Positions 5,298-16,803 of a stretch of 64,000 nt of DNA are shown one piece after another. How positions within the stretch are numbered: the first letter of the stretch is position 1; every line of letters starts with the position of its first letter. Origin of the DNA: Streptomyces globisporus (lineage in GTDB: Bacteria > Actinomycetota > Actinomycetes > Streptomycetales > Streptomycetaceae); the NCBI GenBank assembly GCA_014649555.1, contig BMTG01000008.1, forward strand, positions 186,001 through 250,000. The letters run 5' to 3'. The notes below the pieces were generated by a model. It was given only the letters and a program-made list of their open reading frames with translations. It did no database searches and had not been told where the DNA came from. A program made the position numbers and the translations under genes.

Positions 5298-5945
5298 CTA
5301 CTTCGGGGGCATCAGGACCGTGTCGACGATGTAGACGGTCGCGTTGGCGGTCGGGACGTTGCCGCAGACGACCTTCGAGTTGTCGTTCACGGTGTACTCC
5401 GTGCCCGAGCCGGCCGTCGTCAGCTTGCTCTTCTCCAGGGTGTCGAAGGACCCCTTCTCCAGCTGCTGCGGCGTCAGCTTCTCGCCCACCACGTGGTAGG
5501 TGAGGACCTTGGTGAGCTCGGCCTTGTTCGCCAGCAGCGCGTCCAGGTCGGCCTTCGGGATCTTCGCGAAGGCGTCGTTGGTCGGGGCGAACACCGTGAT
5601 GTTCTCGGCGTTGTTGAGCGTGTCGACCAGGCCGGCCTGCTTCACGGCGGCCACCAGTGTCGACAGCTCCTCGTTGTTCGAGGCGGCCGTCGCGACCGGG
5701 TCCTTCGCCATGCCGTCGAACGAGCCCGCGCCTTCCTTCGGCACCGACGAACAGGCCGGACCGAACGGCTCGTTCATGGTCGCCGAGTCGTCGGCCGAGG
5801 GGCTCGCCGGCGCGGATGCGCTGGGCGTGGAGCCAGCTGCCGAGTCCTTGGAGGAGTCGTCCGACGAGCAGGCGGTCAGCGCCAGCGGCAGCACGGCTGC
5901 TGCGGACACGGCGACGGCTGCGCGGCGGAAGAGGAGCGTGTTCAT
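5298..5945 (-). CDS. fasciclin-domain surface lipoprotein (MPT70/MPT83-like)
   Basis: A 215-residue exported lipoprotein. The N-terminal signal ends in the lipobox LTAC, whose Cys would be diacylated after Lgt/Lsp processing. A ~40-residue Ser/Ala/Pro/Asp linker follows, then one FAS1 domain with the conserved ITVFAPTNDAF (H1) and YHVVGEKL (H2-type) motifs. This is the architecture of mycobacterial MPT83; MPT70/MPT83 are the best known targets of SigK in Mycobacterium tuberculosis. The start is the ATG at 5945, with AGGAGAA 7 nt before it. A SigK-type promoter (6003-6031) lies ~50 nt upstream, and the sigK gene itself is in this window. FAS1 domains act in adhesion; the ligand here is unknown. 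Confidence 0.93.
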   Translation of the reverse strand: MNTLLFRRAAVAVSAAAVLPLALTACSSDDSSKDSAAGSTPSASAPASPSADDSATMNEPFGPACSSVPKEGAGSFDGMAKDPVATAASNNEELSTLVAAVKQAGLVDTLNNAENITVFAPTNDAFAKIPKADLDALLANKAELTKVLTYHVVGEKLTPQQLEKGSFDTLEKSKLTTAGSGTEYTVNDNSKVVCGNVPTANATVYIVDTVLMPPK

Positions 5946-6002
5946 GGCGTTTCTCCTGGATCGGGAGGGTAGTGCGGAGAGCGGTCTGTTCTGACACGAG
6001 GG

Positions 6003-6031
6003 GTTCGGCGCCGGGGCGGCCCGCGGATTGG
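6003..6031 (-). promoter_or_regulatory. SigK-type promoter of the fasciclin gene
   Basis: Read on the minus strand: -35 CCAATCC (6025-6031), 16-nt spacer, -10 CCGAAC (6003-6008). The -35 is embedded in GACCAATCCG, shared exactly with the two other SigK-type promoters here. The mycobacterial SigK consensus I know is CCATCC-N16/17-CCGAAT. The predicted leader is about 50 nt. Confidence 0.75.
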
Positions 6032-6076
6032 TCCCGGACTCCTCATTCACCCGTTCGGAGCAGATCCGGTGATCGA

Positions 6077-6104
6077 CCAATCCGTTCGGCCATCAGCCAC
6101 GAAT
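6077..6104 (+). promoter_or_regulatory. SigK-type promoter of the lipid-modification operon
   Basis: CCAATCC (6077-6083), 15-nt spacer, ACGAAT (6099-6104), inside the common 10-mer GACCAATCCG. It drives the rightward operon starting at 6165. It is back-to-back with the fasciclin promoter, only 45 nt between the two -35 elements, so both units can be switched on together. Confidence 0.75.
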
Positions 6105-6164
6105 GCCACTTGAGGGGCGCTCCAACAGCGCTCCGACCAGGCGGAAGAACCGGAGGGAGCCGGG

Positions 6165-7439
6165 ATGGCAGGGGAACGGCGGCGCACGGCCGTGGTGGGG
6201 TCCGGAGTGGCGGGACTGACCGCCGCCCACGTTCTCCACGACGTTCATGAGGTGACGCTCTACGAGGCGGACGACCGCGTCGGCGGCCACGCCCACACCC
6301 ATGATCTGGCCGCGTCCGACGGCCGGGTGCACCGTGTCGACTCCGGGTTCATCGTGCACAACCGACGGACCTACCCCCACCTGCTGCGGCTCTACGACGA
6401 ACTGGGCGTCGCCACGCAGGAGTCCGAGATGTCGATGTCCGTACGCTGCGAGGGCTGCGGTCTGGAGTACGCCGGAGCCCGGGGTCCCGCCGGGCTCTTC
6501 GCACAGCCGCGCTCCGCCGTGCGCGGCCCCTATCTGCGGATGCTCGCCGAGGTGCCGCGCTTCCACCGTGCCGCCCGGGCCCTGCTGGCGCTGCCGGAGA
6601 GCGGGGCGAGCGGTATGACGCTGGGGGAGTTCGCCCGGCGCGGGCGCTTCTCGCCGTACTTCCACGCCCACTTCCTGACGCCCATGGTCTCCGCCGTCTG
6701 GTCCTGCGACCCGGTCACCGCCCTGCGCTACCCGGCCCGCTATCTCTTCCGCTTCCTCGACCACCACGGCATGCTCACCATCGGGAACTCCCCGGTCTGG
6801 CGCACCGTCACCGGCGGTTCGCGCTCTTACGTCGACCTCGTCGTCAAGCAGCTCGCCGCCGTGCACACCGCGACCCCGGTCCGCGCCATCACCCGGCACG
6901 CGGACGGCGTCGACATCACCACCGAGGACGGCACGACCACCCCTTACGACTCCGTCGTCATCGCCACCCACCCCGACCAGGCGCTGCGGATGCTCGCCGA
7001 CCCGACCGACGCCGAGCGCAGCACGCTCGGCGCGTTCCGGTACTCCCGCAACCCGACGCTGCTGCACACGGACACCACGCTGCTGCCGCGCGCCCGGGGC
7101 GCCCGCGCTTCCTGGAACTACCTGATGCCCTCGTGCGCCGCCGACGCCGACCGGGTGACAGTGAGCTACGACATGAACCGGCTCCAGCGGCTCGACGCCC
7201 CGGACACCTACGTCGTCACCCTGAACGGCGCCGACCGGGTCGACCCGGACACCGTCCGAGCCCGCATGGTCTACGAGCACCCCGTCTACACCCCGGAGTC
7301 GGTCGCGGCCCAGACCCGGCTGCACACCCTGTCCGGCCCCGTCACCGCCTACGCGGGGGCGTACCACGGCTGGGGCTTCCACGAGGACGGCTGCCGTTCG
7401 GGGGTCGAGGCAGCCGCCGCCCTGGGGGTGAGGTGGTGA
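6165..7439 (+). CDS. FAD/NAD-dependent oxidoreductase, amine-oxidase fold (COG2907)
   Basis: A 424-residue flavoprotein starting with the dinucleotide-binding fold VVGSGVAGLTAAHVL (residues ~10-24) and the second FAD motif YEADDRVGGHAHTH. The C-terminal FAD contact region has AYAGAYHGWGFHEDGCRSG. This COG2907 family accompanies DUF1365 and cyclopropane-synthase-like genes in many bacteria and corresponds to Rv0449c next to sigK in M. tuberculosis. It probably oxidises or desaturates membrane fatty acyl chains, but the exact reaction is unproven. GGAGGGAG precedes the ATG. It is the first gene of a five-gene operon with 4-nt overlaps (6165-11566) driven by a SigK-type promoter. Confidence 0.88.
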   Translation: MAGERRRTAVVGSGVAGLTAAHVLHDVHEVTLYEADDRVGGHAHTHDLAASDGRVHRVDSGFIVHNRRTYPHLLRLYDELGVATQESEMSMSVRCEGCGLEYAGARGPAGLFAQPRSAVRGPYLRMLAEVPRFHRAARALLALPESGASGMTLGEFARRGRFSPYFHAHFLTPMVSAVWSCDPVTALRYPARYLFRFLDHHGMLTIGNSPVWRTVTGGSRSYVDLVVKQLAAVHTATPVRAITRHADGVDITTEDGTTTPYDSVVIATHPDQALRMLADPTDAERSTLGAFRYSRNPTLLHTDTTLLPRARGARASWNYLMPSCAADADRVTVSYDMNRLQRLDAPDTYVVTLNGADRVDPDTVRARMVYEHPVYTPESVAAQTRLHTLSGPVTAYAGAYHGWGFHEDGCRSGVEAAAALGVRW

Positions 7440-8158
7440 GCGCCCTCTACCCGTGCACCATCACGCACGTACGGAACCGGCCGACGAAGTACGCGCTCCG
7501 GCACCGGACCTACCTGTGGCTGATCGACCCCGACCGGCCGCCCCGGCTGCCGCGCGCCCTGCGGCCGCTGGCCCGGTTCGACCCCCGTGACCACTTCGGC
7601 GGCACCGCCCCCACCATCCGGGCCGGTCTCGAGCGTTTCCTGCGGGCCCGGGGCGTGGAGCTGGGCGACGGCACCGTCACCATGCTCACCCAGGCCCGGG
7701 TGCTCGGGTACGTCTTCAACCCGATCACCGTCTACTGGTGCCACCGAGCCGACGGCAGTCCCCTCTGCGTCGTCGCCGAGGTGCACAACACGTACGGCGG
7801 ACGGCACGGCTATCTCCTGCGTCCCGACGGTAATGACCGTGCCGTGACCGGCAAGGAGTTCTACGTCTCGCCGTTCTTCCCCGTGGACGGCGGCTACCGG
7901 ATGCGGCTGCCCGAGCCCGGGTCCCGTCTCGACCTGAGCGTCCACCTGGAGCGTGAGGGGGCGCGCCCGTTCACCGCGACCGTACGGGGCACCCGCCGCC
8001 CGGCCACCCCCGGGGAGCTGGTGCGTCTCGCCCTGCGCCACCCCTTCTCCACCGTCCTCGTCTCCGCCGCGATCCGCCTGCACGGCATCCGGCTCTATCT
8101 GCGCGGGCTCCCCGTGCAACCCCGTCCCCCGCACCGCACACAGGAAGGCATGCAGTGA
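7436..8158 (+). CDS. DUF1365 family protein
   Basis: A 240-residue protein of the DUF1365 family (COG3496; Rv0448c in the mycobacterial sigK locus). Recognisable features are the N-terminal HVRNRPTKYALRHRTYLWLIDPD, the central LGYVFNPITVYWCH motif, EVHNTYGGRHGY and the KEFYVSPFF segment. Its biochemical role is unknown, but it is almost always encoded beside a COG2907 flavoprotein and a CFA-synthase homologue, suggesting it takes part in the same acyl-chain modification. The GTG start at 7436 overlaps the previous stop codon as GTGA, so translation is coupled; an alternative GTG lies one codon upstream. Confidence 0.88.
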   Translation: MSALYPCTITHVRNRPTKYALRHRTYLWLIDPDRPPRLPRALRPLARFDPRDHFGGTAPTIRAGLERFLRARGVELGDGTVTMLTQARVLGYVFNPITVYWCHRADGSPLCVVAEVHNTYGGRHGYLLRPDGNDRAVTGKEFYVSPFFPVDGGYRMRLPEPGSRLDLSVHLEREGARPFTATVRGTRRPATPGELVRLALRHPFSTVLVSAAIRLHGIRLYLRGLPVQPRPPHRTQEGMQ

Positions 8159-9420
8159 CCGCTCCCACCTCGGCGCTGCCGGCAGAGCACACCCCCGGGA
8201 CCGACCCGGAACGCTGGCCCGACATCGTCACCCTGCCCCGGGTCTCCCGCGCCCGGACCGCCGTCGCCGAACGCATCGTCCGCCGCGCGCTCGGCAGGCT
8301 CCCCCTGCGCGCCCGGCTCGCGGGCCAAGGCGACATCGGCCTCGGCGGGCCCCTCATGGACATCCGCGAACCCGACGCCTTCTTCCGGCGGATCGGCGCG
8401 AGCGGACTCATCGGCTTCGGCGAGTCCTACATGGCCGGCGAGTGGGACGCGCCCGACCTCGTCGCCGTGCTGACCGTCCTCGCCGACAACGCCGCCGACC
8501 TCGTCCCCCGCTCCCTGCAACGCCTGCGTGGGATCTGGCATCTGCGCAGGCCCGCCGCGCAGATGAACACCCCCGAGGGCTCCCGGGACAACATCAGCCA
8601 CCACTACGACCTGTCGAACGAGCTGTTCGCCCTCTTCCTCGACGAGACGCTCTCCTACTCCTCCGCCGTCTTCCGCGGCTTCCCCGCCGAGCACGACCTG
8701 CTGCCCGCGGCCCAGCACCGCAAGATCGACCGGCTGCTCGACGCCGCCGGGGTCACCGACGGCACCCGGCTGCTGGAGATCGGCACCGGCTGGGGCGAAC
8801 TGGCCATCCGCGCGGCCGCCCGCGGCGCCCGGGTCACCACCGTCACCCTCTCCGCCGAACAGCGCGAACTGGCCCGGGCCCGCATCCGCGAAGCCGGGTT
8901 CGAGGACCGCGTCGAGGTACGGCTGAGCGACTACCGGCATGTCACCGGCGACTACGACGCCATCGTCAGCGTCGAGATGATCGAGGCGGTCGGCGAGGAG
9001 TTCTGGCCGGTCTACTTCGAGACCCTGGACCGGCTGCTCGCCCCCGGCGGCCGCATCGCCCTCCAGGCCATCACCATGCCCGACGACCGGCTGCGCGTCA
9101 GCCGGTCCACGTACACCTGGATCCACAAGTACATCTTCCCCGGCGGACTGCTGCCCTCCACCGAGGCCGTCGAGCGGATCACCACCGGCCACACCCGGCT
9201 GCGCACCACTCAGCGCATCCGGTTCGGCGCGCACTACGCCGAGACGCTCCGGCTGTGGCGCGAGCGGTTCACCGAGCGGACCGCCGAGGTCGACGCCCTC
9301 GGCTTCGACGCCGTCTTCCGCCGGATGTGGACCTTCTACCTCGCCTACTCCGAAGCGGGCTTCCGCTCCGGCTATCTCGATGTGCAGCAACTGCTGCTGA
9401 CCCGTGAGGAGACCGCGTGA
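8155..9420 (+). CDS. cyclopropane-fatty-acyl-phospholipid synthase homologue 1
   Basis: A 421-residue S-adenosylmethionine-dependent methyltransferase of the CFA/mycolic-acid-cyclopropane-synthase superfamily. It has an N-terminal lipid-binding region, the signature NISHHYDLSNELFALFLD (about residues 143-160), SAM motif I LLEIGTGWGELAIRAA, and the catalytic-region motif VEMIEAVGEEFW. Such enzymes transfer a methylene or methyl group to the double bond of unsaturated phospholipid acyl chains at the membrane surface. The counterpart in M. tuberculosis is ufaA1 (Rv0447c). GTGA overlap with the preceding gene. The next gene encodes a divergent second copy, so the two may catalyse successive or chemically different steps. 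Confidence 0.9.
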   Translation: MTAPTSALPAEHTPGTDPERWPDIVTLPRVSRARTAVAERIVRRALGRLPLRARLAGQGDIGLGGPLMDIREPDAFFRRIGASGLIGFGESYMAGEWDAPDLVAVLTVLADNAADLVPRSLQRLRGIWHLRRPAAQMNTPEGSRDNISHHYDLSNELFALFLDETLSYSSAVFRGFPAEHDLLPAAQHRKIDRLLDAAGVTDGTRLLEIGTGWGELAIRAAARGARVTTVTLSAEQRELARARIREAGFEDRVEVRLSDYRHVTGDYDAIVSVEMIEAVGEEFWPVYFETLDRLLAPGGRIALQAITMPDDRLRVSRSTYTWIHKYIFPGGLLPSTEAVERITTGHTRLRTTQRIRFGAHYAETLRLWRERFTERTAEVDALGFDAVFRRMWTFYLAYSEAGFRSGYLDVQQLLLTREETA

Positions 9421-10766
9421 CCACCTCCGCCACCAGGCCGCCCGCCCTGCGCACCCCGACCGGGGCCGCCCAGCGCATCGAACCGCTGATCGAGCGGTTC
9501 CTCGGCGGCGGACTGCCGGTCCGGGTACGGATGTGGGACGGCAGCGAGATCGGGCCCCGGGATGCCCCCACCGTCCATGTGCGGACCCGCAGAGCGCTGC
9601 GCCGCCTGCTGTGGGAGCCGGGCGAACTCGGCCTCGCCGAGGCCTACATCACCGGTGACATCGACCTCGACGCCGATCTCGGCGACGGGCTGCGCGCCAT
9701 GCGCCGCGCCGTGCGTGAACGCGGCCTCACCGCGCCCGCGCCCGCGCTCGCCGACCGGGTCAAGGCGGCGGTCCTCGCCCTGCGCCTCGGCGCGGTCGGC
9801 CCCCGGCCGCCGGTGCCCGCCGCCCGCGCGGGACTGCGCGGGGAACTGCACAGCAAGGCCCGCGACCGGGCGGCGATCAGCCACCACTACGACCTGTCCA
9901 ACGCCTTCTACGCCCTGCTCCTCGACGAGACGATGGCGTACTCCTGCGGCTACTGGACCAGTGACGCACCCGGCTACGGCCCGGCCGACGCCCAGCGCGA
10001 CAAGCTGGAGCTGATCTGCCGCAAGCTCGGACTGCGGCCCGGCGCGCGGCTGCTGGACATCGGCTGCGGCTGGGGTTCGCTGACCCTGTACGCGGCCGAG
10101 CACCACGGCGCCCGCGTCACCGCCGTCACCCTCGCCGCCGAACAGGCCGCGTACGTACGGCAGCAGGTCGAAAGCCGTGGACTCGGCGAGCTCGTCGAGG
10201 TGCTGAACATCGACTACCGGGACATCGCGGAGCGGCCCGGGACCCGGGGCGCGTACGACGCCGTCTCCACCATCGAGATGGGCGAGCACGTCGGGGACGC
10301 CGAGTACCCGGCGTTCACCCGGATCCTGCACGACGTGCTCCGGCCGCAGGGCCGGGCCATGGTCCAGCAGATGTCCCGGGGAACGACCGCTCCCGGCGGC
10401 GGTGCGTTCATCGAGTCCTACATCGCTCCCGACATGCACATGCGGCCGCTCGGTGACACCGTCGCCCTGCTGGAGGGCTCGGGGCTGGAGGTCCGCGACG
10501 TCGAGTCCCTGCGCGAGCACTACGTGTGGACGGTGGAGGCCTGGCGGCGCACCCTGGAGGAGCGCTGGGCGGAGTTCGTCGCCATGGTGGGGGAGGAGAC
10601 CGCGCGGGTGTGGCGGCTCTATCTCGTCGGCGGCGCGCTCGCGTTCGAGGAGCGGCGGATGGGCGTCGACCAGATCCTGTCCGTACGGCCCGACCCGGTC
10701 GGCTCCGCCGCGATGCCCCCCACCCGGCGCGACTGGTACGCGGCCGGGCCGGAGGAGCAGCGGTGA
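9417..10766 (+). CDS. cyclopropane-fatty-acyl-phospholipid synthase homologue 2
   Basis: A 449-residue paralogue of the preceding methyltransferase. It carries AISHHYDLSNAFYALLLD, SAM motif I LLDIGCGWGSLTLYAAEHHG, and a TIEMGEHVGDAEY segment where homologue 1 has VEMIEAVGEEFW. The N-terminal ~150 residues differ strongly from homologue 1 and contain a DGSEIGP / LGLAEAYITGDIDLD module as in CFA synthases of other actinomycetes. Two CFA-type genes in one operon are unusual relative to the single ufaA1 of mycobacteria. Translation is coupled by a GTGA overlap. A downstream DUF1295 reductase-like gene completes the set. Confidence 0.9.
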   Translation: MTTSATRPPALRTPTGAAQRIEPLIERFLGGGLPVRVRMWDGSEIGPRDAPTVHVRTRRALRRLLWEPGELGLAEAYITGDIDLDADLGDGLRAMRRAVRERGLTAPAPALADRVKAAVLALRLGAVGPRPPVPAARAGLRGELHSKARDRAAISHHYDLSNAFYALLLDETMAYSCGYWTSDAPGYGPADAQRDKLELICRKLGLRPGARLLDIGCGWGSLTLYAAEHHGARVTAVTLAAEQAAYVRQQVESRGLGELVEVLNIDYRDIAERPGTRGAYDAVSTIEMGEHVGDAEYPAFTRILHDVLRPQGRAMVQQMSRGTTAPGGGAFIESYIAPDMHMRPLGDTVALLEGSGLEVRDVESLREHYVWTVEAWRRTLEERWAEFVAMVGEETARVWRLYLVGGALAFEERRMGVDQILSVRPDPVGSAAMPPTRRDWYAAGPEEQR

Positions 10767-11566
10767 GCGGCTTCGCCTGGGCCGCGTTCGCGAGCGGGCT
10801 CGCGGGCGCGGCCGTCGCCGCCCTCGGCGTCATGCTGGTCACCTTCGCCGTCGCCCTGAAGAAGGGCGTGCACCGGATCGTCGACGTCGCCTGGGGCATC
10901 GGGTTCGCCGCCGTCGCGCTGGTCTCCTACGGCCTCTCGGCGGGCGAGGGCGACGACGTCCGCCGACTGCTCGTCACCGCGCTGACCGTGATCTGGGGGC
11001 TGCGCCTCGCGATCCACATCGGGCGGCGCGGGAAGGGGCACGGAGAGGACCCGCGTTACGAGAAGATGCTGGCCAAGGCCCCCGGCAACCCCCAGCTGTA
11101 CGCCCTGCGCAAGGTGTATCTGCTCCAGGGCGCGCTGGTCTGGCTCATCTCGCTCCCGGTCCAGGCCGCGCAGTACCTCACCGCGCCGCTCGCCTGGTGG
11201 GCCTGGGCGGGGGTGCTGCTGTGGGCGGTCGGGCTGGCCTTCGAGGCCATCGGTGACGCCCAGCTCGCCCGGTTCAAGGCCGACCCCGCCAACAAGGGGA
11301 AGATCATGGACCGGGGGCTGTGGTCCTGGACCCGCCATCCGAACTACTTCGGCGACTTCTGCGTCTGGTGGGGCCTCTTCCTCTTCGTCTGCCAGGCGCC
11401 GGCCGCCGCTGCCGCGACCGTCGTCGCCCCGCTGGTGATGAGCTTCCTGCTGACGAAGGGCAGCGGCGCGGCCCTGCTGGAGCGTCATATGGCCGACCGG
11501 CCGGGGTTCGACGCGTATGTGGCGCGGACGAGCGGCTTCTTTCCGCGGCCGCCACGTCGCGCGTAA
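10763..11566 (+). CDS. DUF1295 (steroid 5-alpha-reductase-like) membrane protein
   Basis: A 267-residue polytopic membrane protein of the DUF1295/COG3752 family (Rv0446c in the sigK locus of mycobacteria), distantly related to steroid 5-alpha-reductases and isoprenylcysteine methyltransferases. The family C-terminal signature is present: GLWSWTRHPNYFGDFCVWWG, then LERHMADRPGFDAYVARTSGFFP. These conserved His/Arg/Tyr residues normally bind a nicotinamide or SAM cofactor, so a membrane-embedded reduction of an unsaturated lipid intermediate is plausible but unproven. The GTG overlaps the preceding stop (GTGA) after a GGAGGAG. It is the last gene of the operon; a 17-bp terminator hairpin follows at once. 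Confidence 0.88.
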   Translation: MSGFAWAAFASGLAGAAVAALGVMLVTFAVALKKGVHRIVDVAWGIGFAAVALVSYGLSAGEGDDVRRLLVTALTVIWGLRLAIHIGRRGKGHGEDPRYEKMLAKAPGNPQLYALRKVYLLQGALVWLISLPVQAAQYLTAPLAWWAWAGVLLWAVGLAFEAIGDAQLARFKADPANKGKIMDRGLWSWTRHPNYFGDFCVWWGLFLFVCQAPAAAAATVVAPLVMSFLLTKGSGAALLERHMADRPGFDAYVARTSGFFPRPPRRA

Positions 11567-11572
11567 GCACGT

Positions 11573-11612
11573 GGAAGGGCCTGTTCCGCAGCCGCGCGGA
11601 ACAGGCCCTTCC
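11573..11612. terminator. bidirectional terminator hairpin
   Basis: A perfect 17-bp stem (11573-11589 with 11596-11612, 6-nt loop) lies between the convergent DUF1295 and photolyase genes, so it can end both the lipid operon and the sigK-rskA-phr transcript. Confidence 0.9.
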
Positions 11613-11626
11613 AGAGGTCGTACGGG

Positions 11627-12997
11627 TCAGTCCAGGCCACGCGCGCGTTCGAAGCGGGAGCGCGCCTCGGCCAGGTCCACCACCGGGTCGGGATAGTCGA
11701 TGCCCGCCCGGTCCGGGCCTGCCAGTTTCCAGGGCTCGTGGATCGCGGACCGCTTCACCTCCGCCAGCTCCGGCACCCACCGCCGTACGTAAGTGCCGTC
11801 CGGGTCGAAGCGCTTGCCCTGGACCACCGGGTTCAGGATCCGGTTGGGGCGGGTGTCCGTGCCCGTGCCCGCCACCCACTGCCAGTTGAGCTGGTTGTTC
11901 GCCACGTCCCCGTCGACCAGCAGGTCCAGGAAGTGCCGGGCGCCCACCCGCCAGTCCACGTACAGCGTCTTCGTGAGGAAGCTCGCGGCCAGCATCCGGC
12001 CCCGGTTGTGCATCCAGCCCTCGTGCGCGAGCTGCCGCATCGCCGCGTCCACCAGCGGATAGCCGGTGTGTCCCGTCTTCCAGGCGTCGATCTCGTCCTC
12101 GTCCGAGCGCCAGCGGTCGTGGCGCGGCCGGTAGTCGGTCCAGGAGGCGTCGTGGCGGGCCGCGAGGACCTGGTGGTGGAAGTCGCGCCAGGCCAGCTGC
12201 CGTACGAACGCCTCACCGCCGGGGCCGCCCTTCTCCCGTGCCCGGTTGGCCAGTTCGGCGGCGGAGACCGTACCGAAGTGCAGATGGGGGGAGAGCCGGG
12301 AGGTCGCGTCGCCGGCCAGGTCGTCGTGGCCGTCCTCGTAGTCGGCCAGGGGGCCGTGGAGCCAGGACGTCACCAGCTTGCGGCCCGCCTTCTCGCCGCC
12401 GCGCGCGAGGCCGGGGGAGAGGTCCTTGATCGTGTCCCGGTCCGGGAGCGTGTCGCCGGACACGCCGTCGGGTACCCGGACCGTGCGGGGAGCGGCCAGT
12501 GTGCCCCGTACTCCCTCCGCCTCCCAACGGCGGAAGTACGGGGTGAACACCGCGAAGTGGTCCTTGCCGCCCGTCGGGACCACCCGGCCCGGGGGGAGCG
12601 CGGTGACCACCGCGTCATGGACGCGCAGATCGCATCCGGTGCCCGCGAGGGCCTCCCGGACACGTTCCTCGCGCTGTGCCGCGTACCCGCTGACCCCGGC
12701 GGCGATGTGCACGGATGCGGCCCCGGTCTGCTCGACGACCCGCTTCACCTCGCGGGCGGTCTTCCCCCGGCGGACGATCAGTCTGCCGTCGCGGTCACGG
12801 AGTCCGGCGTCCAGGTCCGCCAGGCAGTCCGCGAGGAACGCCAGCCGGTTGGGTGCGTCGAAGCCGGCCCGGTGGACGGCGTCGTCCCGCACGAACAGCG
12901 GGACGACCTCGTCCGCGTCCCGCAGAGCGGCACGCAGCACCGGATTGTCGTGCAGACGCAGGTCGGAGGTGAACAGCACCACCGCGACACTACTCAT
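11627..12997 (-). CDS. phr: deoxyribodipyrimidine photolyase
   Basis: A 456-residue DNA photolyase that uses FADH- and light to split UV-induced pyrimidine dimers. The N-terminal Rossmann-like antenna domain starts VVLFTSDLRLHDNP. The C-terminal helical FAD domain shows RLSPHLHFGTVS, WRDFHHQVL, the GYPLVDAAMRQL motif with MHNRGRMLAASFLTK, and WQWVAGTGTDTRPNRILNP. Length is normal for class I CPD photolyases. It starts 38 nt after rskA on the same strand, so it is most simply read as the third gene of sigK-rskA-phr. Linking a photolyase to this sigma factor suggests the trigger is light or reactive oxygen made by light. Confidence 0.95.
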   Translation of the reverse strand: MSSVAVVLFTSDLRLHDNPVLRAALRDADEVVPLFVRDDAVHRAGFDAPNRLAFLADCLADLDAGLRDRDGRLIVRRGKTAREVKRVVEQTGAASVHIAAGVSGYAAQREERVREALAGTGCDLRVHDAVVTALPPGRVVPTGGKDHFAVFTPYFRRWEAEGVRGTLAAPRTVRVPDGVSGDTLPDRDTIKDLSPGLARGGEKAGRKLVTSWLHGPLADYEDGHDDLAGDATSRLSPHLHFGTVSAAELANRAREKGGPGGEAFVRQLAWRDFHHQVLAARHDASWTDYRPRHDRWRSDEDEIDAWKTGHTGYPLVDAAMRQLAHEGWMHNRGRMLAASFLTKTLYVDWRVGARHFLDLLVDGDVANNQLNWQWVAGTGTDTRPNRILNPVVQGKRFDPDGTYVRRWVPELAEVKRSAIHEPWKLAGPDRAGIDYPDPVVDLAEARSRFERARGLD

Positions 12998-13035
12998 GGA
13001 ACGCGTGCTCCCTTGCGGTACTCGTGGGTGGGACG

Positions 13036-13788
13036 TCAGGCGGTCGGGAAGTCCATCAGCGCCACCGGATCCGAGGTCGGTTCGGCGGAGCCACCGGCGG
13101 GCTCGACCGTGATGCCCATCCCGGACGCCTGGTCCACCGGCCCGTTCAGCAGGACCGCGTCGTCGCTCGCCTTCGGGTCCATCAGCCCGGCCGAGCGCAT
13201 CGTGCCCTCGTCGTTGAACCAGATCTGGTAGACCTTGCCGCTCGGCGGGGGAGCCATGTTCGCGGCCAGGAACACCGCGCGGTTCTGGCTCTGCGAGACG
13301 ACGACGGTGCCGCGGGCCCCGCCCGTCAGCTCACTCGACGACGTCTTCGCGTCGGGGGCCGAGAGCACCTGCGCCAGCTGCTCGTTCTGCCGCTGCGCCT
13401 GGTTCGCCTCCTGCCGCGCGTCCTGCGCCACCTGGTTCTGCCAGACCGCGACCCCGCCGAACGCGGCCGCCGCGGCGATGCAGGCGGCGAGCGCGTAGCC
13501 GGACCACCGTCCGGTGCGTCCCCGCCCGCTGCTCCGTTCACGTCTGCCGTGCGCCGGAGCCTCCTGGCGTACGGTCGTGATCTCCCGCAGCACCCGCTCG
13601 CGCAGCTCGCGCGGTGAGGGCTCGGCGACGGCGAGACCGAGCCGGGCGGCGGTGGCCGACAGCTCCCGCACCTCCTGGGAGCAGGCCTCGCAGTCCTCCA
13701 GATGCCGTTCGAACGCGCGCTGTTCGGACTCCGGCAGTGCATGCAGGGCATAGGCCCCGGTCAGCGTGTGCAACTCGGCCGTGCTCAT
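13036..13788 (-). CDS. rskA: anti-sigma-K factor RskA
   Basis: A 250-residue membrane anti-sigma factor. The N-terminal cytoplasmic part contains a zinc-binding anti-sigma motif H-x3-C-x2-C (His29, Cys33, Cys36), a single transmembrane helix lies near residues 95-115 (YALAACIAAAAAFGGVAVW), and the extracytoplasmic RskA domain ends with GKVYQIWFNDEGTMRSAGLM and a Gly/Pro-rich tail. Such proteins hold the sigma factor at the membrane until a signal causes regulated proteolysis. The ATG overlaps the sigK stop codon (ATGA), so sigma and anti-sigma are translationally coupled. Open reading continues far upstream in this frame through sigK, but that extension is only sequence antiparallel to other frames. 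Confidence 0.93.
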   Translation of the reverse strand: MSTAELHTLTGAYALHALPESEQRAFERHLEDCEACSQEVRELSATAARLGLAVAEPSPRELRERVLREITTVRQEAPAHGRRERSSGRGRTGRWSGYALAACIAAAAAFGGVAVWQNQVAQDARQEANQAQRQNEQLAQVLSAPDAKTSSSELTGGARGTVVVSQSQNRAVFLAANMAPPPSGKVYQIWFNDEGTMRSAGLMDPKASDDAVLLNGPVDQASGMGITVEPAGGSAEPTSDPVALMDFPTA

Positions 13789-14369
13789 GCGCTCACCCCC
13801 AGGCAGTCGCGCAGCCGGATGAGGCCGTCGCGGAGTCGTGTCTTGATGGTGCCCAGCGGCACGGAGAGGAGTTCGGAGACCTCGCGATAGGTCAGCCCCC
13901 GGTAGTAGGCGAGGGTCACCGACTCCCGTTGCAGCTCGGACAGGGTGCGCATACAGCGCCGTACCTGTTCTCTCTCCAGCCGGGTCTCGACCTGTTCGGA
14001 CACCTCGTCGAAGGCGGGCATCCGCTCCAGCAGCGCCGCCTTGTGCTCCCGGGCGGCGGCCGCCTCGGCCGAGCGGACCCGGTCGACGGCCCGGTGGTGG
14101 GCCAGGGTCAGCACCCAGTTCATCGCGCTGCCCCGGGATGCCTGGAAGCGGGGCGCGGTGCGCCACACCTCCACCAGCACCTCCTGCGCCACCTCCTCCG
14201 ACTGCGCCGGGTCGCGAAGGACACTGCGCACCAGGCCGAGTACGGGCCCGCTCACCGCGTCGTACACCGAGGCGAACGCGTCCTGGTCGCCCCGCGCGAC
14301 CCGCACCATGAGTTCCTGGAGATCGGGACCGGGGGAGGGCACCCCACTGATGTGTACGGCTTCCTTCAC
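13785..14369 (-). CDS. sigK: ECF RNA polymerase sigma factor SigK
   Basis: A 194-residue group IV sigma factor with region 2 (residues ~20-95, including SEEVAQEVLVEVWR) and region 4 (~130-188, ending in the helix-turn-helix YREVSELLSVPLGTIKTRLRDGLIRLR). Two cysteines, Cys139 and Cys189, are 50 residues apart; in M. tuberculosis SigK the redox-active pair (Cys133 and Cys183, from memory) has the same separation, so oxidative disulfide formation is a plausible way to release RskA. A promoter with the SigK-type motif lies upstream (14409-14436), pointing to positive autoregulation. Gene content around it (fasciclin protein, COG2907, DUF1365, CFA, DUF1295, RskA) matches the mycobacterial SigK regulon almost gene for gene. 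Confidence 0.92.
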   Translation of the reverse strand: MKEAVHISGVPSPGPDLQELMVRVARGDQDAFASVYDAVSGPVLGLVRSVLRDPAQSEEVAQEVLVEVWRTAPRFQASRGSAMNWVLTLAHHRAVDRVRSAEAAAAREHKAALLERMPAFDEVSEQVETRLEREQVRRCMRTLSELQRESVTLAYYRGLTYREVSELLSVPLGTIKTRLRDGLIRLRDCLGVSA

Positions 14370-14408: not shown

Positions 14409-14436
14409 ATTCGGAGCCGGCGGCCGTGCGGATTGG
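14409..14436 (-). promoter_or_regulatory. SigK-type autoregulatory promoter of sigK
   Basis: Minus strand: CCAATCC (14430-14436), 15-nt spacer, CCGAAT (14409-14414). The -10 matches the mycobacterial SigK consensus exactly, and GACCAATCCG is identical to the other two sites. Predicted leader about 33 nt. Confidence 0.8.
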
Positions 14437-14483
14437 TCGGATGTCCGCGATCTTTCCAGACCGGGCCCGGGAGGACGCGTGAC

Positions 14484-14921
14484 TCAGGCGGCCAGCGTTT
14501 CGCGCCGCCGCAGACGGACGGTGCGGACCGCGAGGAAGATCAGCAGCCCGAACGGCGACAGCAGGATCGTCAGCACCAGCAGCGGGCCCATCAGCAGCGG
14601 TGGGAGTCCCAGCTTCCGGCTCTGGAGATACATCCACTGGCCGAGCAGGAGATCCCAGGCGATCACCTGCGCCCAGACGGCCCCCGCCCCGCCGGCCAGC
14701 GCCGTCAGATCGCGGAAGGTGTCGATGTCCGGGCTGCTCACCGCTGTCCAGAGCTCCGGGAAGACCGGGACGGCCAGGACGGTGTAGACGGCGAGCACCG
14801 GCAGCACCGTCAGCGGGGACGCTGCGACGCGGGCGGTGCCGGACCAGGTGGGGGCGAAGATCATCAGCAGCCAGAACGGGGCGGCCAGATAGAACGTGAT
14901 CTCGAAGAGTGCACCGGTCAT
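14484..14921 (-). CDS. ABA4-like (DUF4281) membrane protein
   Basis: A 145-residue integral membrane protein with four hydrophobic segments. The pattern WLLMIFAPTW near the start, the acidic loop and the central VWAQVIAWDLLLGQWMYLQSRKL match the ABA4-like/DUF4281 family, named after a plant protein involved in xanthophyll metabolism; bacterial members have no established function. Its ATG overlaps the stop codon of the upstream membrane protein gene (ATGA), so the two form a coupled pair reading away from the MerR gene. It ends ~50 nt before the sigK promoter. Location beside a light/redox-type sigma operon fits a carotenoid or membrane role, but that is inference. Confidence 0.75.
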   Translation of the reverse strand: MTGALFEITFYLAAPFWLLMIFAPTWSGTARVAASPLTVLPVLAVYTVLAVPVFPELWTAVSSPDIDTFRDLTALAGGAGAVWAQVIAWDLLLGQWMYLQSRKLGLPPLLMGPLLVLTILLSPFGLLIFLAVRTVRLRRRETLAA

Positions 14922-15883
14922 GCCACGGGCTCCTGTTCGGCGGTGGTACGGGACGGTCGGTCGGGGGCGGTCGGGCGCAGCACCCTCCAGGTGCCGTACG
15001 CCACCGCCGCGAGGATCGTTCCGGCGGCGGCGAGCGTGACCCCGTCCGGGTGGATCAGTGGCTGGCCGCGGAGCGCCTGCCAGGTGATGAGCGCGACGAG
15101 CGCCGCGTAACCGCCGACGGCGACCCGGACGAGGCGCAGCCGCACCCCGGCGTCGCGCAGCGCGGCGAAGCGGGGCGCGAGCAGCACCAGTGCGATCAGG
15201 AGGAGCGGTATCAGCTGGAGCGCGTGCATGCCCACGAAGTGCGGGGCCCGCAGATCGCCGCCGGTCGTCGACCAGCCGGTCAGCGGCATGGACGGGCCGC
15301 CGTCCGGTACGCCCACGGAGTGCGCGCCGATGGTGTCGGCGGCGTCAAGATTTCCGGCCGCCTGCTGGCTCTCGCTCGGCAGAGTCATCAGGAACCCGAG
15401 TCCCGCGCCGGCCAGGGCGATCAGCAGGCCGCCCCGGACGGCGAGGGCCGTCGCCCGGTCGGTGATACGGGTGCACAGCAGCAGGACGGCGATCACCAGG
15501 GTGGCCGCCCACAGCGCGACGATGGTCATCCCCATCGCGTTCCACAGGGCCGAGTCGAAGGCGGTCGCGGTGTTGAAGTGGCTGCGCTTCCCCCGGAGGA
15601 CCTGCGCGGTGATGATCACCATCTCGATCAGCCCCGTCAGTACGACGACGTGCCCCGCCCACCGGCCGATCCGTCGCCCGCGGGTGAGGAGCGTCAGCAT
15701 CCAGGCCAGCGTCAGGCAGTACGCGACGAAGGACACGCTGAACTTGAACGGCTTCGCCCAGATCGGCGCCCCCACCAGAACCCGGTCGTCGACCATGAGG
15801 CCGACGGCGGAGACGACGGCGAGAGCAGCCATCGCGGCGGAGAAGACGACTAATGGGCGATGCCAGGAACGCCATGACGGCAT
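14918..15883 (-). CDS. conserved integral membrane protein with a TTA codon
   Basis: A 321-residue protein with about eight transmembrane segments and a large loop containing GAHSVGVPDGGPSMP, GWSTTGGDLR and HFVGMHALQLIP. I know this motif set from a conserved but uncharacterised bacterial family; the histidines could bind a metal or haem. Codon 11 is TTA (complement of 15851-15853). TTA is decoded in Streptomyces only by the developmentally regulated bldA tRNA, so translation is likely delayed to late growth. AGGGGG precedes the ATG. It is divergent from a MerR regulator across a region with a CTATCCGATAG palindrome, and coupled to the ABA4-like gene downstream. Confidence 0.82.
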   Translation of the reverse strand: MPSWRSWHRPLVVFSAAMAALAVVSAVGLMVDDRVLVGAPIWAKPFKFSVSFVAYCLTLAWMLTLLTRGRRIGRWAGHVVVLTGLIEMVIITAQVLRGKRSHFNTATAFDSALWNAMGMTIVALWAATLVIAVLLLCTRITDRATALAVRGGLLIALAGAGLGFLMTLPSESQQAAGNLDAADTIGAHSVGVPDGGPSMPLTGWSTTGGDLRAPHFVGMHALQLIPLLLIALVLLAPRFAALRDAGVRLRLVRVAVGGYAALVALITWQALRGQPLIHPDGVTLAAAGTILAAVAYGTWRVLRPTAPDRPSRTTAEQEPVA

Positions 15884-15924
15884 GGGGACCCCCTGGGGTG
15901 ATGCGGCGGTGACGCGACCAGTAT

Positions 15925-15969
15925 GGATAGCCGCGCTGTCTGCTATCCGATAGAGGGACTATCTATGAT
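15925..15969. promoter_or_regulatory. MerR-gene promoter with CTATC operator palindrome
   Basis: GGATAG (15925-15930), the 11-bp palindrome CTATCCGATAG (15943-15953) and CTATCT (15959-15964) form a cluster of half-sites between the divergent membrane-protein and MerR genes. TATGAT (15964-15969) is a good -10 for the MerR gene, about 40 nt before its GTG. The palindrome falls in the spacer between -35 and -10, where MerR proteins normally bind. Confidence 0.55.
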
Positions 15970-16008
15970 GGGGGCGGTTTCTGGCAAGGGCGAAAGGGCG
16001 AACACGCG

Positions 16009-16803
16009 GTGCGCATCGGCGAATTGAGTCGCAGGTCCGGAGTTCCGGTGCCGACGATCAAGTACTACCTACGTGAAGGGCTGCTGGCCGCAGGGGAGTT
16101 GACCAGCCCTAACCAGGCGCACTACGGCCCCGGGCACGAGCGCAGGCTGCGGCTGATCAGGGTGCTGGTGGAAGTCGGCGGCCTCCCGCTCGCCGCCATC
16201 GGCGAGGTCCTGCGGGCCATGGATGATCCCGGGCAGCCGGTGCACGAGGTGCTCGGGGCCGCGGCGGACCGCGTCACGCCTACCGGCGGGGAGGAGGCCG
16301 GGCCGGACCTGGAGGATGCGCGCGAGGAGGTGGCCGAGCTGGTGCGGCGGCGCGGCTGGGAGGCGGATGAGCGGGGCCCCGCCGCCGAATCGCTGGCGGG
16401 GGTGCTGTGCGCGCTGCGCAGGGCCGGGCACGGCGGGTACGCCGAACTGCTGGACGTCTACGCGGACGCCGCCGAGCCGGTGGCCCGGGCCGATCTCGAC
16501 TACGTGCAGCGGCGGGTGGCGCGCGAGGACCTGGTCGAGAGTGTCGTGGTGGGAACCGTTCTCGGCGAGGCGATGTTCGGCGCGCTGCGGAGGCTGGCGC
16601 ACATCGACGTGTCGTTCCGGCGCTTCGAGTCGCCGGAGCAGCTGTCGGGGCCCGTGGAGCCGGTCGGGTCGGCAGGCTCGGGGGACTCCGGTGGCGGGGA
16701 GGCCGCCGGGGAAGCGGGCGGTGCCCGGGATGCGGAAGGCTCCGGCGTCACAGAGGGGGCCGGGGGCTCGGACGGCGGGGGGCCGGGCGCGGCGGGCGTC
16801 TGA
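16009..16803 (+). CDS. MerR family transcriptional regulator
   Basis: A 264-residue regulator. The N-terminus is a MerR winged helix: MRIGELSRRSGVPVPTIKYY followed by LREGLLAAGE, then a coiled helix region. The central ~110 residues form an alpha-helical effector-type domain (AELLDVYADAAEPVARADLDYVQRRVAREDLV) also seen in Streptomyces MerR proteins of the TetR-C-like kind. The last ~45 residues are low-complexity Gly/Ala/Glu. No cysteine metal-binding motif and no B12-binding domain is visible, so it is not a LitR-type light sensor. Start is the GTG at 16009. It probably controls the divergent membrane-protein pair and itself. The 289 nt downstream (16804-17092) show no gene. Confidence 0.85.
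   Translation: MRIGELSRRSGVPVPTIKYYLREGLLAAGELTSPNQAHYGPGHERRLRLIRVLVEVGGLPLAAIGEVLRAMDDPGQPVHEVLGAAADRVTPTGGEEAGPDLEDAREEVAELVRRRGWEADERGPAAESLAGVLCALRRAGHGGYAELLDVYADAAEPVARADLDYVQRRVAREDLVESVVVGTVLGEAMFGALRRLAHIDVSFRRFESPEQLSGPVEPVGSAGSGDSGGGEAAGEAGGARDAEGSGVTEGAGGSDGGGPGAAGV

What the first reader, a model, noticed from the sequence alone, without database searches (positions are those of the whole stretch)
5298..14369. Streptomyces SigK regulon couples membrane-lipid modification, a fasciclin lipoprotein and photolyase: a candidate photo-oxidative response
COG2907 flavoprotein, DUF1365, CFA-type methyltransferases and DUF1295 occur beside ECF sigma factors and photolyase in ChrR/RpoE-type singlet-oxygen regulons of Proteobacteria, and beside sigK-rskA in mycobacteria. 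Here both themes meet: RskA takes the place of ChrR, photolyase is in the sigma operon, and two CFA homologues are present. The lipid product is unknown.
Basis: partly seen in the sequence, partly recalled or inferred. Interest (0 to 1): 0.85.

Follow-up and report, generated by a model that had tools for sequence, protein, structure and literature searches.

The report
Streptomyces SigK photo-oxidative, furan-lipid gene set
A Streptomyces gene cluster places under one stress regulator a DNA-repair enzyme that runs on light, a surface protein and enzymes likely to make protective furan fats, much of the set that a photosynthetic bacterium switches on against light-made singlet oxygen, which offers a testable idea of what this regulator senses.

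Summary
Nine genes at 5298-14369 are a fasciclin lipoprotein, a UfaD-like flavoprotein, DUF1365 (UfaO family), two CFA-family methyltransferases, DUF1295, a class-I photolyase, RskA and SigK. One promoter, ACCAATCC-N16/17-CGRAY, precedes the fasciclin gene, ufaD and sigK: three matches in the window, 0.03 expected.

Five effector types match the published singlet-oxygen regulon of Rhodobacter sphaeroides (photolyase, UfaM, UfaD, UfaO, fasciclin), with SigK/RskA in place of RpoE/ChrR. CFA1 has the UfaM-type active site and groups with photolyase-linked CFAs of Rhodobacterales; CFA2 branches with the genome's ordinary CFA. A methylated furan fatty acid is the likely product.

In 93 other Streptomyces loci photolyase is nearby in 30: 9 in the sigK-rskA operon, 21 with a LitR-type regulator. 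The promoter also precedes a second fasciclin gene, a membrane molybdoenzyme (one mismatch) and a dipZ remnant elsewhere in this genome.

There are no expression or lipid data. Light or singlet oxygen as signal is inferred; M. kansasii light data support it only in part. Verdict: new variant of a known kind, directly testable.

The parts
5298..5945 (-). fasciclin-domain lipoprotein
   Evidence: Pfam Fasciclin 2e-34; start and lipobox LTAC read from sequence
6003..6032 (-). SigK-type promoter of the fasciclin gene (ACCAATCC-N17-CGAAC)
6076..6104 (+). SigK-type promoter of the ufaD operon (ACCAATCC-N16-CGAAT)
6165..7439 (+). UfaD-like FAD-dependent desaturase (COG2907 type, name recalled)
   Evidence: 37% identity to the UfaD-position protein of Qingshengfaniella
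7436..8158 (+). DUF1365 protein, UfaO family (predicted fatty-acyl oxygenase)
   Evidence: Pfam DUF1365 3e-67; 34% identity to the UfaO-position protein of Qingshengfaniella
8155..9420 (+). CFA1, UfaM-type SAM methyltransferase (SEQIY at E. coli Cfa 139/239/266/268/317)
9417..10766 (+). CFA2, second CFA-family methyltransferase (CEQMY at the same positions)
10763..11566 (+). DUF1295 protein (also weaker steroid-5-alpha-reductase and ICMT matches)
11627..12997 (-). class-I DNA photolyase, third gene of the sigK operon; only FAD_binding_7 protein found in the genome
13036..13788 (-). RskA anti-sigma factor (zinc motif HxxxCxxC; one membrane segment read from sequence; RskA_C)
13785..14369 (-). 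SigK ECF sigma factor with both cysteines that align with the redox pair of M. tuberculosis SigK
14409..14437 (-). SigK-type promoter of sigK-rskA-phr (ACCAATCC-N16-CGAAT)

Best explanation
The locus is an actinobacterial counterpart of the RpoE/ChrR singlet-oxygen regulon, driven by a SigK/RskA pair. Proposed mechanism: a membrane or envelope oxidative signal, most likely singlet oxygen or lipid hydroperoxide made by light, leads to loss of RskA or to oxidation of the SigK cysteine pair. Freed SigK then reads ACCAATCC-N16/17-CGRAY promoters. It raises itself, RskA and the photolyase; the fasciclin lipoproteins; a membrane molybdoenzyme elsewhere in the genome; and a lipid operon. In that operon CFA1 (UfaM-type) methylates an unsaturated acyl chain in phospholipid, UfaD introduces a second double bond and UfaO adds O2 to close a furan ring. 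The furan fatty acid scavenges singlet oxygen and, as in R. sphaeroides, may feed back on anti-sigma turnover. CFA2 and DUF1295 tailor the product. Shown here: gene content, promoter motifs, kinship by clade and active-site signature, recurrence. Inferred: SigK use of the motif, signal, lipid product, feedback.
For: (1) Three promoter copies in the window against 0.03 expected. In 25 other Streptomyces genomes, chosen among those with the locus, 108 matches against 2 for the reversed pattern. In 93 Streptomyces loci, 88 of 92 matches lie within 700 bp upstream of sigK (35), the molybdoenzyme (24), ufaD (20) or fasciclin (9); reversed control 0. (2) Five effector types match the R. sphaeroides RpoE regulon: phrA, cfaS/ufaM, RSP_1091 and RSP_1090, fasciclin RSP_1409 (PMC7074977, passages). 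(3) UfaM/UfaD/UfaO make furan fatty acids, and UfaO holds DUF1365 (PMC7380195: abstract, passages and one section). (4) CFA1 shares [SA]EQIY with 43 of 45 cluster-linked CFAs of the named loci and with all 10 of the nearer CFAs (45-49% identity to the Azospirillum CFA) of nine Rhodobacterales genomes, 9 of these 10 beside a photolyase; it groups with them in the tree (95 SH-aLRT). E. coli Cfa and the genome's own third CFA read CEHIY. (5) SigK cysteine patterns in 61 of 61 and RskA HxxxCxxC in 58 of 59 Streptomyces copies. (6) Photolyase within about 9 kb in 30 of 93 loci, though each of 26 genomes examined has only one; the in-operon state stands at three separate places on the UfaD tree. (7) Where photolyase is near but outside the sigK operon, a LitR-type regulator is present in 21 of 21. 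(8) R. capsulatus SigK-like RpoE and RskA-like ChrR rise with singlet oxygen; light raises fasciclin genes mpk83 and mpk70 in M. kansasii (PMC9861118, passages). (9) In V. cholerae blue light acts through ChrR and a MerR-like regulator in one predicted operon with phr (PMC5241685, passages).
Against: No expression or lipid data. In M. kansasii light raised mpk83 and mpk70 only 6- and 3-fold; dipZ did not change, and no sigK or ufaD-type gene is among the 14 genes of the table passage I saw. C. glutamicum phrB is not largely affected by light (PMC6739363, passages). 63 of 93 Streptomyces loci have no photolyase nearby, and 32 of 93 have no SigK hit of 200 bits nearby, some through contig ends. 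Fasciclin is beside UfaD in only 1 of 80 named loci. Plasmid copies in Streptomyces NBC_00158 and Rhodococcus erythropolis carry the lipid genes with no sigma gene annotated in the stretch shown. Other R. sphaeroides regulon members (RSP_1087-1089, rpoHII, folE2, cycA) were not looked for genome-wide and are not in the locus. R. sphaeroides UfaM/D/O themselves were not fetched; kinship rests on synteny, clade and signature in relatives. Unsaturated 18:1 chains are minor in Streptomyces (recalled). DUF1295 has no role in the published route.
Confidence: 0.6

Rival explanations
1. It is simply the known SigK envelope/redox regulon of actinobacteria (fasciclins, DipZ, Rv0449c-type lipid operon). 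The signal is redox or envelope stress without light, and the photolyase is an incidental third gene of the operon.
For: The same gene order occurs in other actinobacteria without photolyase: UfaD-UfaO-CFA-DUF1295-SigK-RskA in L171 and L174. A dipZ remnant and a second fasciclin gene carry SigK-type sites in this genome. The SigK cysteine pair is kept. The stimuli of SigK-RskA are said to remain obscure (PMC9861118, passages).
Against: Photolyase is within about 9 kb in 30 of 93 Streptomyces loci, although each of 26 genomes examined has just one, and the in-operon state stands at three separate places on the UfaD tree. Photolyase and fasciclin also belong to the R. sphaeroides singlet-oxygen regulon.
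Confidence: 0.27
2. The lipid operon makes a methyl-branched (10-methyl or tuberculostearic-like) or cyclopropane fatty acid rather than a furan: CFA1/CFA2 methylate and DUF1295 or the flavoprotein reduces. (This rival concerns the product only and can hold together with the regulatory reading.)
For: M. tuberculosis UfaA1 (Rv0447c) is reported to make 10-methylstearate in vitro with NADPH (PMC5660069, passages). DUF1295 is in 84 of 93 Streptomyces loci and has weaker steroid-reductase matches. CFA2 groups with the genome's canonical CFA.
Against: CFA1 differs from canonical Cfa at two active-site positions (C139 and H266 are S and Q) and falls in the UfaM-type clade. UfaD and UfaO occur together in 91 of 93 loci, and DUF1365 is the oxygen-adding step of the furan route (PMC7380195). 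The 10-methyl route shown in E. coli uses BfaA/BfaB, an FAD-binding oxidoreductase and its methyltransferase; BfaA was not compared with UfaD here.
Confidence: 0.25
3. The cluster is an ordinary collection of stress genes whose neighbourhood reflects lateral transfer of a mobile lipid operon, not common control.
For: Plasmid copies without SigK in the stretch shown; patchy occurrence, 92 of 246 Streptomyces genomes.
Against: The shared promoter lies upstream of separate transcription units and of off-locus genes of the same type.
Confidence: 0.05

Closest known systems
RpoE/ChrR (ECF11) singlet-oxygen regulon of Rhodobacter sphaeroides
   Same: Five shared effector types: photolyase phrA, UfaM-type CFA, UfaD, UfaO and fasciclin RSP_1409; autoregulated ECF/anti-sigma pair with a zinc motif in the anti-sigma factor
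   Different: The sigma factor is SigK-type (163 bits to 4nqw against 72 to RpoE). The anti-sigma factor is an RskA_C protein with no cupin hit. The genes are gathered in one locus. RSP_1087-1089, rpoHII, folE2 and cycA are not part of it
Mycobacterial SigK/RskA regulon (mpt70, mpt83, dipZ, Rv0449c operon)
   Same: SigK with the cysteine pair, RskA, fasciclin lipoproteins, a UfaD-UfaO-CFA-DUF1295 operon (Rv0449c-Rv0446c identities recalled), dipZ (a remnant here), CCGAAT-type -10 (recalled)
   Different: Photolyase is the third gene of the sigma operon, there are two CFA paralogues, a SigK-type site precedes a membrane molybdoenzyme, and RskA carries an HxxxCxxC motif (its absence in M. tuberculosis RskA is recalled)
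UfaM-UfaD-UfaO methylated furan fatty acid pathway
   Same: Same domains and gene neighbours, and for CFA1 the active-site signature
   Different: Extra CFA2 and DUF1295; activity untested; substrate chain in Streptomyces unknown
LitR/LitS light system of Streptomyces
   Same: Photolyase and the same lipid operon lie beside LitR-type regulators in 21 of 93 other Streptomyces loci
   Different: No LitR match in this genome at the threshold used, a weak test; the photolyase is tied to SigK instead

Membership tests
SigK (ECF19) sigma factor | NCBIfam SigK model over cut-off; best solved relative is SigK | tested here: met
   294 bits against cut-off 226; 4nqw 163 bits
SigK (ECF19) sigma factor | cysteine pair of redox interest (positions 133 and 183, PMC7509140, passages) | tested here: met
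   alignment; cysteine patterns in 61 of 61 Streptomyces copies
SigK (ECF19) sigma factor | own promoter and targets share one motif | tested here: met
   that SigK reads it was not tested
RskA anti-sigma factor | RskA_C domain and N-terminal anti-sigma domain, gene overlapping sigK | tested here: met
   4-bp overlap from coordinates
RpoE/ChrR (ECF11) system | RpoE-type sigma and ChrR with C-terminal cupin domain | tested here: not met
   SigK best match; the anti-sigma factor is RskA_C with no cupin hit
RpoE/ChrR (ECF11) system | targets phr, ufaM-type CFA, ufaD, ufaO, fasciclin | tested here: met
RpoE/ChrR (ECF11) system | targets rpoHII, folE2, cycA, RSP_1087-1089 | not tested
   not in the locus; no genome-wide search made
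RpoE/ChrR (ECF11) system | induction by singlet oxygen | not testable with these tools
   needs RNA data
UfaM-UfaD-UfaO furan fatty acid pathway | UfaO is a DUF1365 protein next to a UfaD-type flavoprotein | tested here: met
   91 of 93 Streptomyces loci have both
UfaM-UfaD-UfaO furan fatty acid pathway | UfaM-type methyltransferase, judged by clade and active site against photolyase-linked CFAs of Rhodobacterales | tested here: met
   CFA1 SEQIY, on the same side of a branch with 95 SH-aLRT; R. sphaeroides UfaM itself not fetched
UfaM-UfaD-UfaO furan fatty acid pathway | makes 9M5-FuFA | not testable with these tools
   needs lipid analysis
canonical cyclopropane synthase (Cfa) | E. coli Cfa residues C139, E239, H266, I268, Y317 (list recalled) | tested here: not met
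   CFA1 SEQIY, CFA2 CEQMY; E. coli and own third CFA CEHIY
class-I CPD photolyase | photolyase plus FAD_binding_7 domains, Trp triad (positions recalled) | tested here: met
   (E274 is Q here)

The most novel reading that the evidence does not exclude
SigK/RskA is the actinobacterial singlet-oxygen or lipid-hydroperoxide sensing pair, parallel to RpoE/ChrR. Its regulon makes furan fatty acids (mono-methyl by CFA1-UfaD-UfaO and, in strains with CFA2, a further methylated form) that both protect the membrane and help release SigK. This would explain the obscure SigK signal in actinobacteria generally. In Streptomyces the single photolyase has moved between LitR (light) and SigK (photo-oxidation) control more than once.
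Probability: 0.3. Interest if true: 0.82.

Novelty: new variant of a known kind. Interest (0 to 1): 0.62.

Why it matters
The stimuli of SigK-RskA are called obscure in a paper read here in passages (PMC9861118). Finding that its Streptomyces regulon shares five effector types with the RpoE/ChrR singlet-oxygen regulon, with a photolyase inside the sigma operon, turns that question into a few direct tests in a soil genus. It also predicts that Streptomyces make furan fatty acids, and it names CFA1, UfaD and UfaO as the enzymes. Searches of the held open library (20 of 80 papers listed, 8 of 8 listed each, none) showed no paper on SigK, fasciclin, photolyase and furan fatty acids together in Streptomyces; the nearest are the M. 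kansasii light study (PMC9861118) and the remark on the SigK likeness of R. capsulatus RpoE (PMC7074977).

Tried and rejected
Considered and rejected. (a) Both CFAs as ordinary cyclopropane synthases: rejected for CFA1 on active site and clade; CFA2 left open. (b) CFA2 as FufM (the second methylase of Rhodopseudomonas palustris): not tested, because that sequence was not obtained; only a parallel in patchy occurrence (55 of 93 loci). (c) Membership in ECF11/ChrR: rejected. (d) Coincidence of neighbours: rejected on promoters and recurrence. (e) Fasciclin beside UfaD as a general rule in Proteobacteria: not found (1 of 80). (f) The one genome-contig scan was aimed at Rhodobacterales to reach R. 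sphaeroides; it kept the best 80 of 321 relatives and that species is not among them. (g) A structure prediction for UfaO was asked for ten times and never accepted because the queue was full, so no fold evidence is offered. (h) Veyrier 2008 (PMC2258859) and Ziegelhoffer 2013 (PMC3546557) are not held and enter only as other papers describe them.
Full report
What is there. The window lies in a genome of 8.2 Mb (G000:C8:186001-250000). On the + strand, each overlapping the next by 4 bases, run a UfaD-like flavoprotein (6165-7439), DUF1365 (7436-8158), CFA1 (8155-9420), CFA2 (9417-10766) and DUF1295 (10763-11566). A fasciclin lipoprotein is divergent to the left (5298-5945). Converging from the right is the operon sigK (13785-14369), rskA (13036-13788), photolyase (11627-12997). 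The rskA-photolyase gap is 38 bp; an 81-base stretch across it folds worse than 189 of 200 shuffles.

Promoters. Reading the two intergenic regions showed one motif three times: ACCAATCC, 16 or 17 bases, CGAAT or CGAAC. The pattern ACCAATCC-N15-17-CGRAY occurs three times in 64 kb, each upstream of one of these transcription units; 0.03 are expected and no shuffle had more than one. In the whole genome an N14-17/CGAA form occurs six times, against none for the reversed pattern. A one-mismatch scan (22 matches against 3 reversed) added a site upstream of a second fasciclin lipoprotein (C2, about 620.13 kb; no mismatch, CGGAT) and a one-mismatch site at C12:14.46 kb immediately before a 527-aa protein. 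That protein has an Oxidored_molyb domain (1e-41) and its nearest solved relatives by sequence are sulfite dehydrogenases and oxidases. A site at C17:102.7 kb precedes a remnant of dipZ: an N-terminal piece weakly DsbD-like (below cut-off) and a C-terminal piece over cut-off for the thioredoxin-like C-terminal domain, whose only two solved matches, both weak (E 0.15-0.16), are DipZ. M. tuberculosis dipZ, mpt70 and mpt83 each have a SigK-dependent promoter in print (PMC9861118, passages). Of the remaining matches a few were looked at, where no related gene was evident; several look like chance and most were not followed.

Regulon across the genus. DUF1365 is present in 92 of 246 genomes of the genus and 35 of 296 of the phylum. 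One search gave 101 rows; leaving out seven fragmentary rows and the window's own, I fetched all 93 others, three of which are partial (G335, G438, G510) and some of which lie near contig ends. Of these 93 loci, 93 have UfaD, 91 both UfaD and UfaO, 89 CFA1, 84 DUF1295, 55 CFA2, 51 fasciclin, 61 SigK (at least 200 bits), 30 photolyase and 29 a LitR-type MerR regulator. That LitR representative matches MerR and B12-binding_2 over cut-off, and B12-binding below cut-off. The promoter pattern occurs 92 times in the 1.64 Mb of these loci, reversed pattern 0. Of these, 88 lie within 700 bp upstream of the labelled start of sigK (35), the molybdoenzyme (24), ufaD (20) or fasciclin (9), and 4 do not; distances for sigK are 35-99 bp and for ufaD 44-94 bp in 18 of 20. 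The molybdoenzyme gene is in 39 of 93 loci, 35 times beside a fasciclin gene on the same strand. In 25 whole genomes chosen among those with the locus there are 108 matches and 2 reversed. I fetched 52 stretches with 61 of these sites, nearly all away from the locus. By reading the downstream frames, with one Pfam check each for the first three types and phmmer for the rest, 10 are the molybdoenzyme, 8 a DUF4331 protein, 7 a second zinc-finger anti-sigma-like protein, 4 fasciclin lipoproteins and 5 SigK (one of them, L229, the sigK of that genome's own locus); two more are RskA-like; the remaining 25 are other or unassigned.

The photolyase. Each of 26 genomes examined, this one included, has exactly one FAD_binding_7 protein. 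Its presence within about 9 kb of the lipid operon in 30 of 93 loci is therefore far above what position alone would give (about 18.7 kb of 8 Mb). In 9 loci, and in the window, it is the third gene of the sigK-rskA operon; in the other 21 a LitR-type regulator is also present. In 19 of the 20 of these that were placed on the tree the two lie within about 1.2 kb, and in one 5 kb apart; one locus (L152) was left out because its UfaD is partial. On a tree of 92 UfaD proteins the in-operon state needs four changes, one of them the contig-truncated locus L113; it stands in one clade with the window and in two separate species. The LitR-linked state needs at least six. UfaD may itself have been transferred, and changes may be losses, so these are not counts of origins. 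In this genome no LitR match was found at the threshold used (a weak test: 10 of 26 genomes had a match).

Proteobacterial relatives. A scan with a UfaD alignment kept 80 named loci; one (L301) is an Acidimicrobiaceae MAG and the rest are Proteobacteria by organism name. Of the 80, 76 have UfaO, 53 a CFA, 46 ChrR, 45 an ECF sigma factor, 13 photolyase, 13 DUF1295 and 1 fasciclin; short contigs are included. I searched nine Rhodobacterales genomes whose UfaD locus showed no CFA. They hold 10 CFAs at 45-49% identity to the Azospirillum CFA, 9 of them beside a photolyase (each of the nine genomes has at least one), and 7 more distant ones at 40-42%. This is the phrA-cfaS arrangement that the locus numbers RSP_2143-2144 imply for R. 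sphaeroides. Qingshengfaniella alkalisoli shows fasciclin, ChrR, sigma, UfaD and UfaO in one row.

What the methyltransferases are. At the E. coli Cfa positions 139/239/266/268/317 (active-site list recalled), E. coli and the genome's own third CFA (C7) read CEHIY. CFA1 reads SEQIY. In a subset of actinobacterial CFA1 rows (about every fourth Streptomyces locus plus the other actinobacteria fetched, window included) 27 of 27 read SEQIY or AEQIY. The cluster-linked CFAs of the named loci do so in 43 of 45, and the ten nearer Rhodobacterales CFAs read SEQIY in 10 of 10. Six of the seven more distant Rhodobacterales CFAs were read, and all six are CEHIY. CFA2 rows, window included, read CEQMY in 13 of 15. 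In the tree CFA1 and the UfaM-type CFAs are on one side of a branch with 95 SH-aLRT, and CFA2 groups with the genome's own canonical CFA with 100 (quick method, midpoint root). So CFA1 is the UfaM candidate and CFA2 looks like a duplicated, altered Cfa.

Mechanism. In R. sphaeroides UfaM methylates 18:1 in phospholipid, UfaD makes a methylated diene and UfaO, which holds DUF1365, adds O2 to form the furan (PMC7380195: abstract, passages, one section). The RpoE/ChrR regulon there contains rpoE-chrR, phrA, cfaS, RSP_1087-1091, the fasciclin RSP_1409, rpoHII, folE2 and others, 13 of 15 induced by singlet oxygen; full RpoE activation needs RSP_1090/91 and CfaS (PMC7074977, passages; PMC6852236, passages). 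The Streptomyces locus holds five of these effector types (photolyase, UfaM-type CFA, UfaD, UfaO, fasciclin); the others were not looked for genome-wide. Its regulator is SigK/RskA: both cysteines named for M. tuberculosis SigK (133 and 183, PMC7509140, passages) have counterparts in 61 of 61 copies, and RskA has HxxxCxxC in 58 of 59. That a SigK/RskA-like pair can serve singlet oxygen is suggested by R. capsulatus, whose RpoE and ChrR are nearer to SigK and RskA (34% and 25%) than to their R. sphaeroides namesakes (24% and 13%) and rise with singlet oxygen (PMC7074977). Light raises mpk83 and mpk70 in M. kansasii (PMC9861118). UV lowers RskA protein in a high-altitude soil actinobacterium (PMC8965627, passages). 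In V. cholerae blue light acts through ChrR and a MerR-like regulator beside phr (PMC5241685, passages). LitR is the B12-based light regulator that drives litS in S. coelicolor (PMC12705666, passages). These are indirect.

Limits. Nothing here measures expression or lipids, and no call shows that SigK reads the motif. The M. kansasii table passage lists neither sigK nor the lipid operon, and C. glutamicum phrB is not largely affected by light. Most Streptomyces loci with the lipid operon do not have photolyase beside it, and a third have no SigK hit of 200 bits beside it. The function of DUF1295 and of fasciclin lipoproteins stays open. The statement that these parts have not been joined in print rests on library searches only; the 2008 paper on SigK regulon evolution could not be read.

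Verdict. The photo-oxidative interpretation is well supported by gene content and comparison but untested. I file the regulator as SigK/RskA, not as RpoE/ChrR, and say it works like RpoE/ChrR. It is a new variant of a known kind.

Noticed in passing
window 11627-12997: The photolyase has Q where E. coli photolyase has E274; all 32 actinobacterial copies examined (window, 30 Streptomyces loci, one other) share this, and 26 of the 31 others also have L at M345, while 12 of 13 copies from the named UfaD loci keep E and M.
   Followed up: partly
L163 about 3707-4070 (own genome C17:102.7 kb): A SigK-type promoter stands before a dipZ remnant that keeps only its first and last parts, so this lineage seems to have lost DipZ at this place.
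   Followed up: partly
L161:2884-4464 (own genome C12:14.46 kb): A protein with a sulfite-oxidase-type molybdenum domain has a one-mismatch SigK-type site at its start; in 39 of 93 Streptomyces loci the same gene is in the cluster, 35 times beside fasciclin. It could be an envelope repair or redox enzyme of the regulon.
   Followed up: partly
L191, L197, L200, L206, L211, L224, L226, L227 and L188, L194, L202, L205, L210, L223, L228: In other Streptomyces, DUF4331 proteins and a second zinc-finger anti-sigma-like protein follow SigK-type promoters (one Pfam check each).
   Followed up: no
window 14484-16803: An ABA4-like membrane protein, another protein and a plain MerR regulator next to sigK recur in 10, 10 and 9 of 61 SigK-type Streptomyces loci.
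   Followed up: no
L137, L140, L146, L150, L155: A second lineage of the lipid operon has photolyase and a LitR-type regulator divergent from ufaD and no SigK, so the same enzymes appear under a different light-linked regulator.
   Followed up: partly
L041 (Rhodococcus erythropolis plasmid, 31 kb) and L040 (Streptomyces NBC_00158 plasmid): UfaD-UfaO-CFA-DUF1295 are on plasmids with an alpha/beta hydrolase nearby and no sigma gene in the stretch shown.
   Followed up: no
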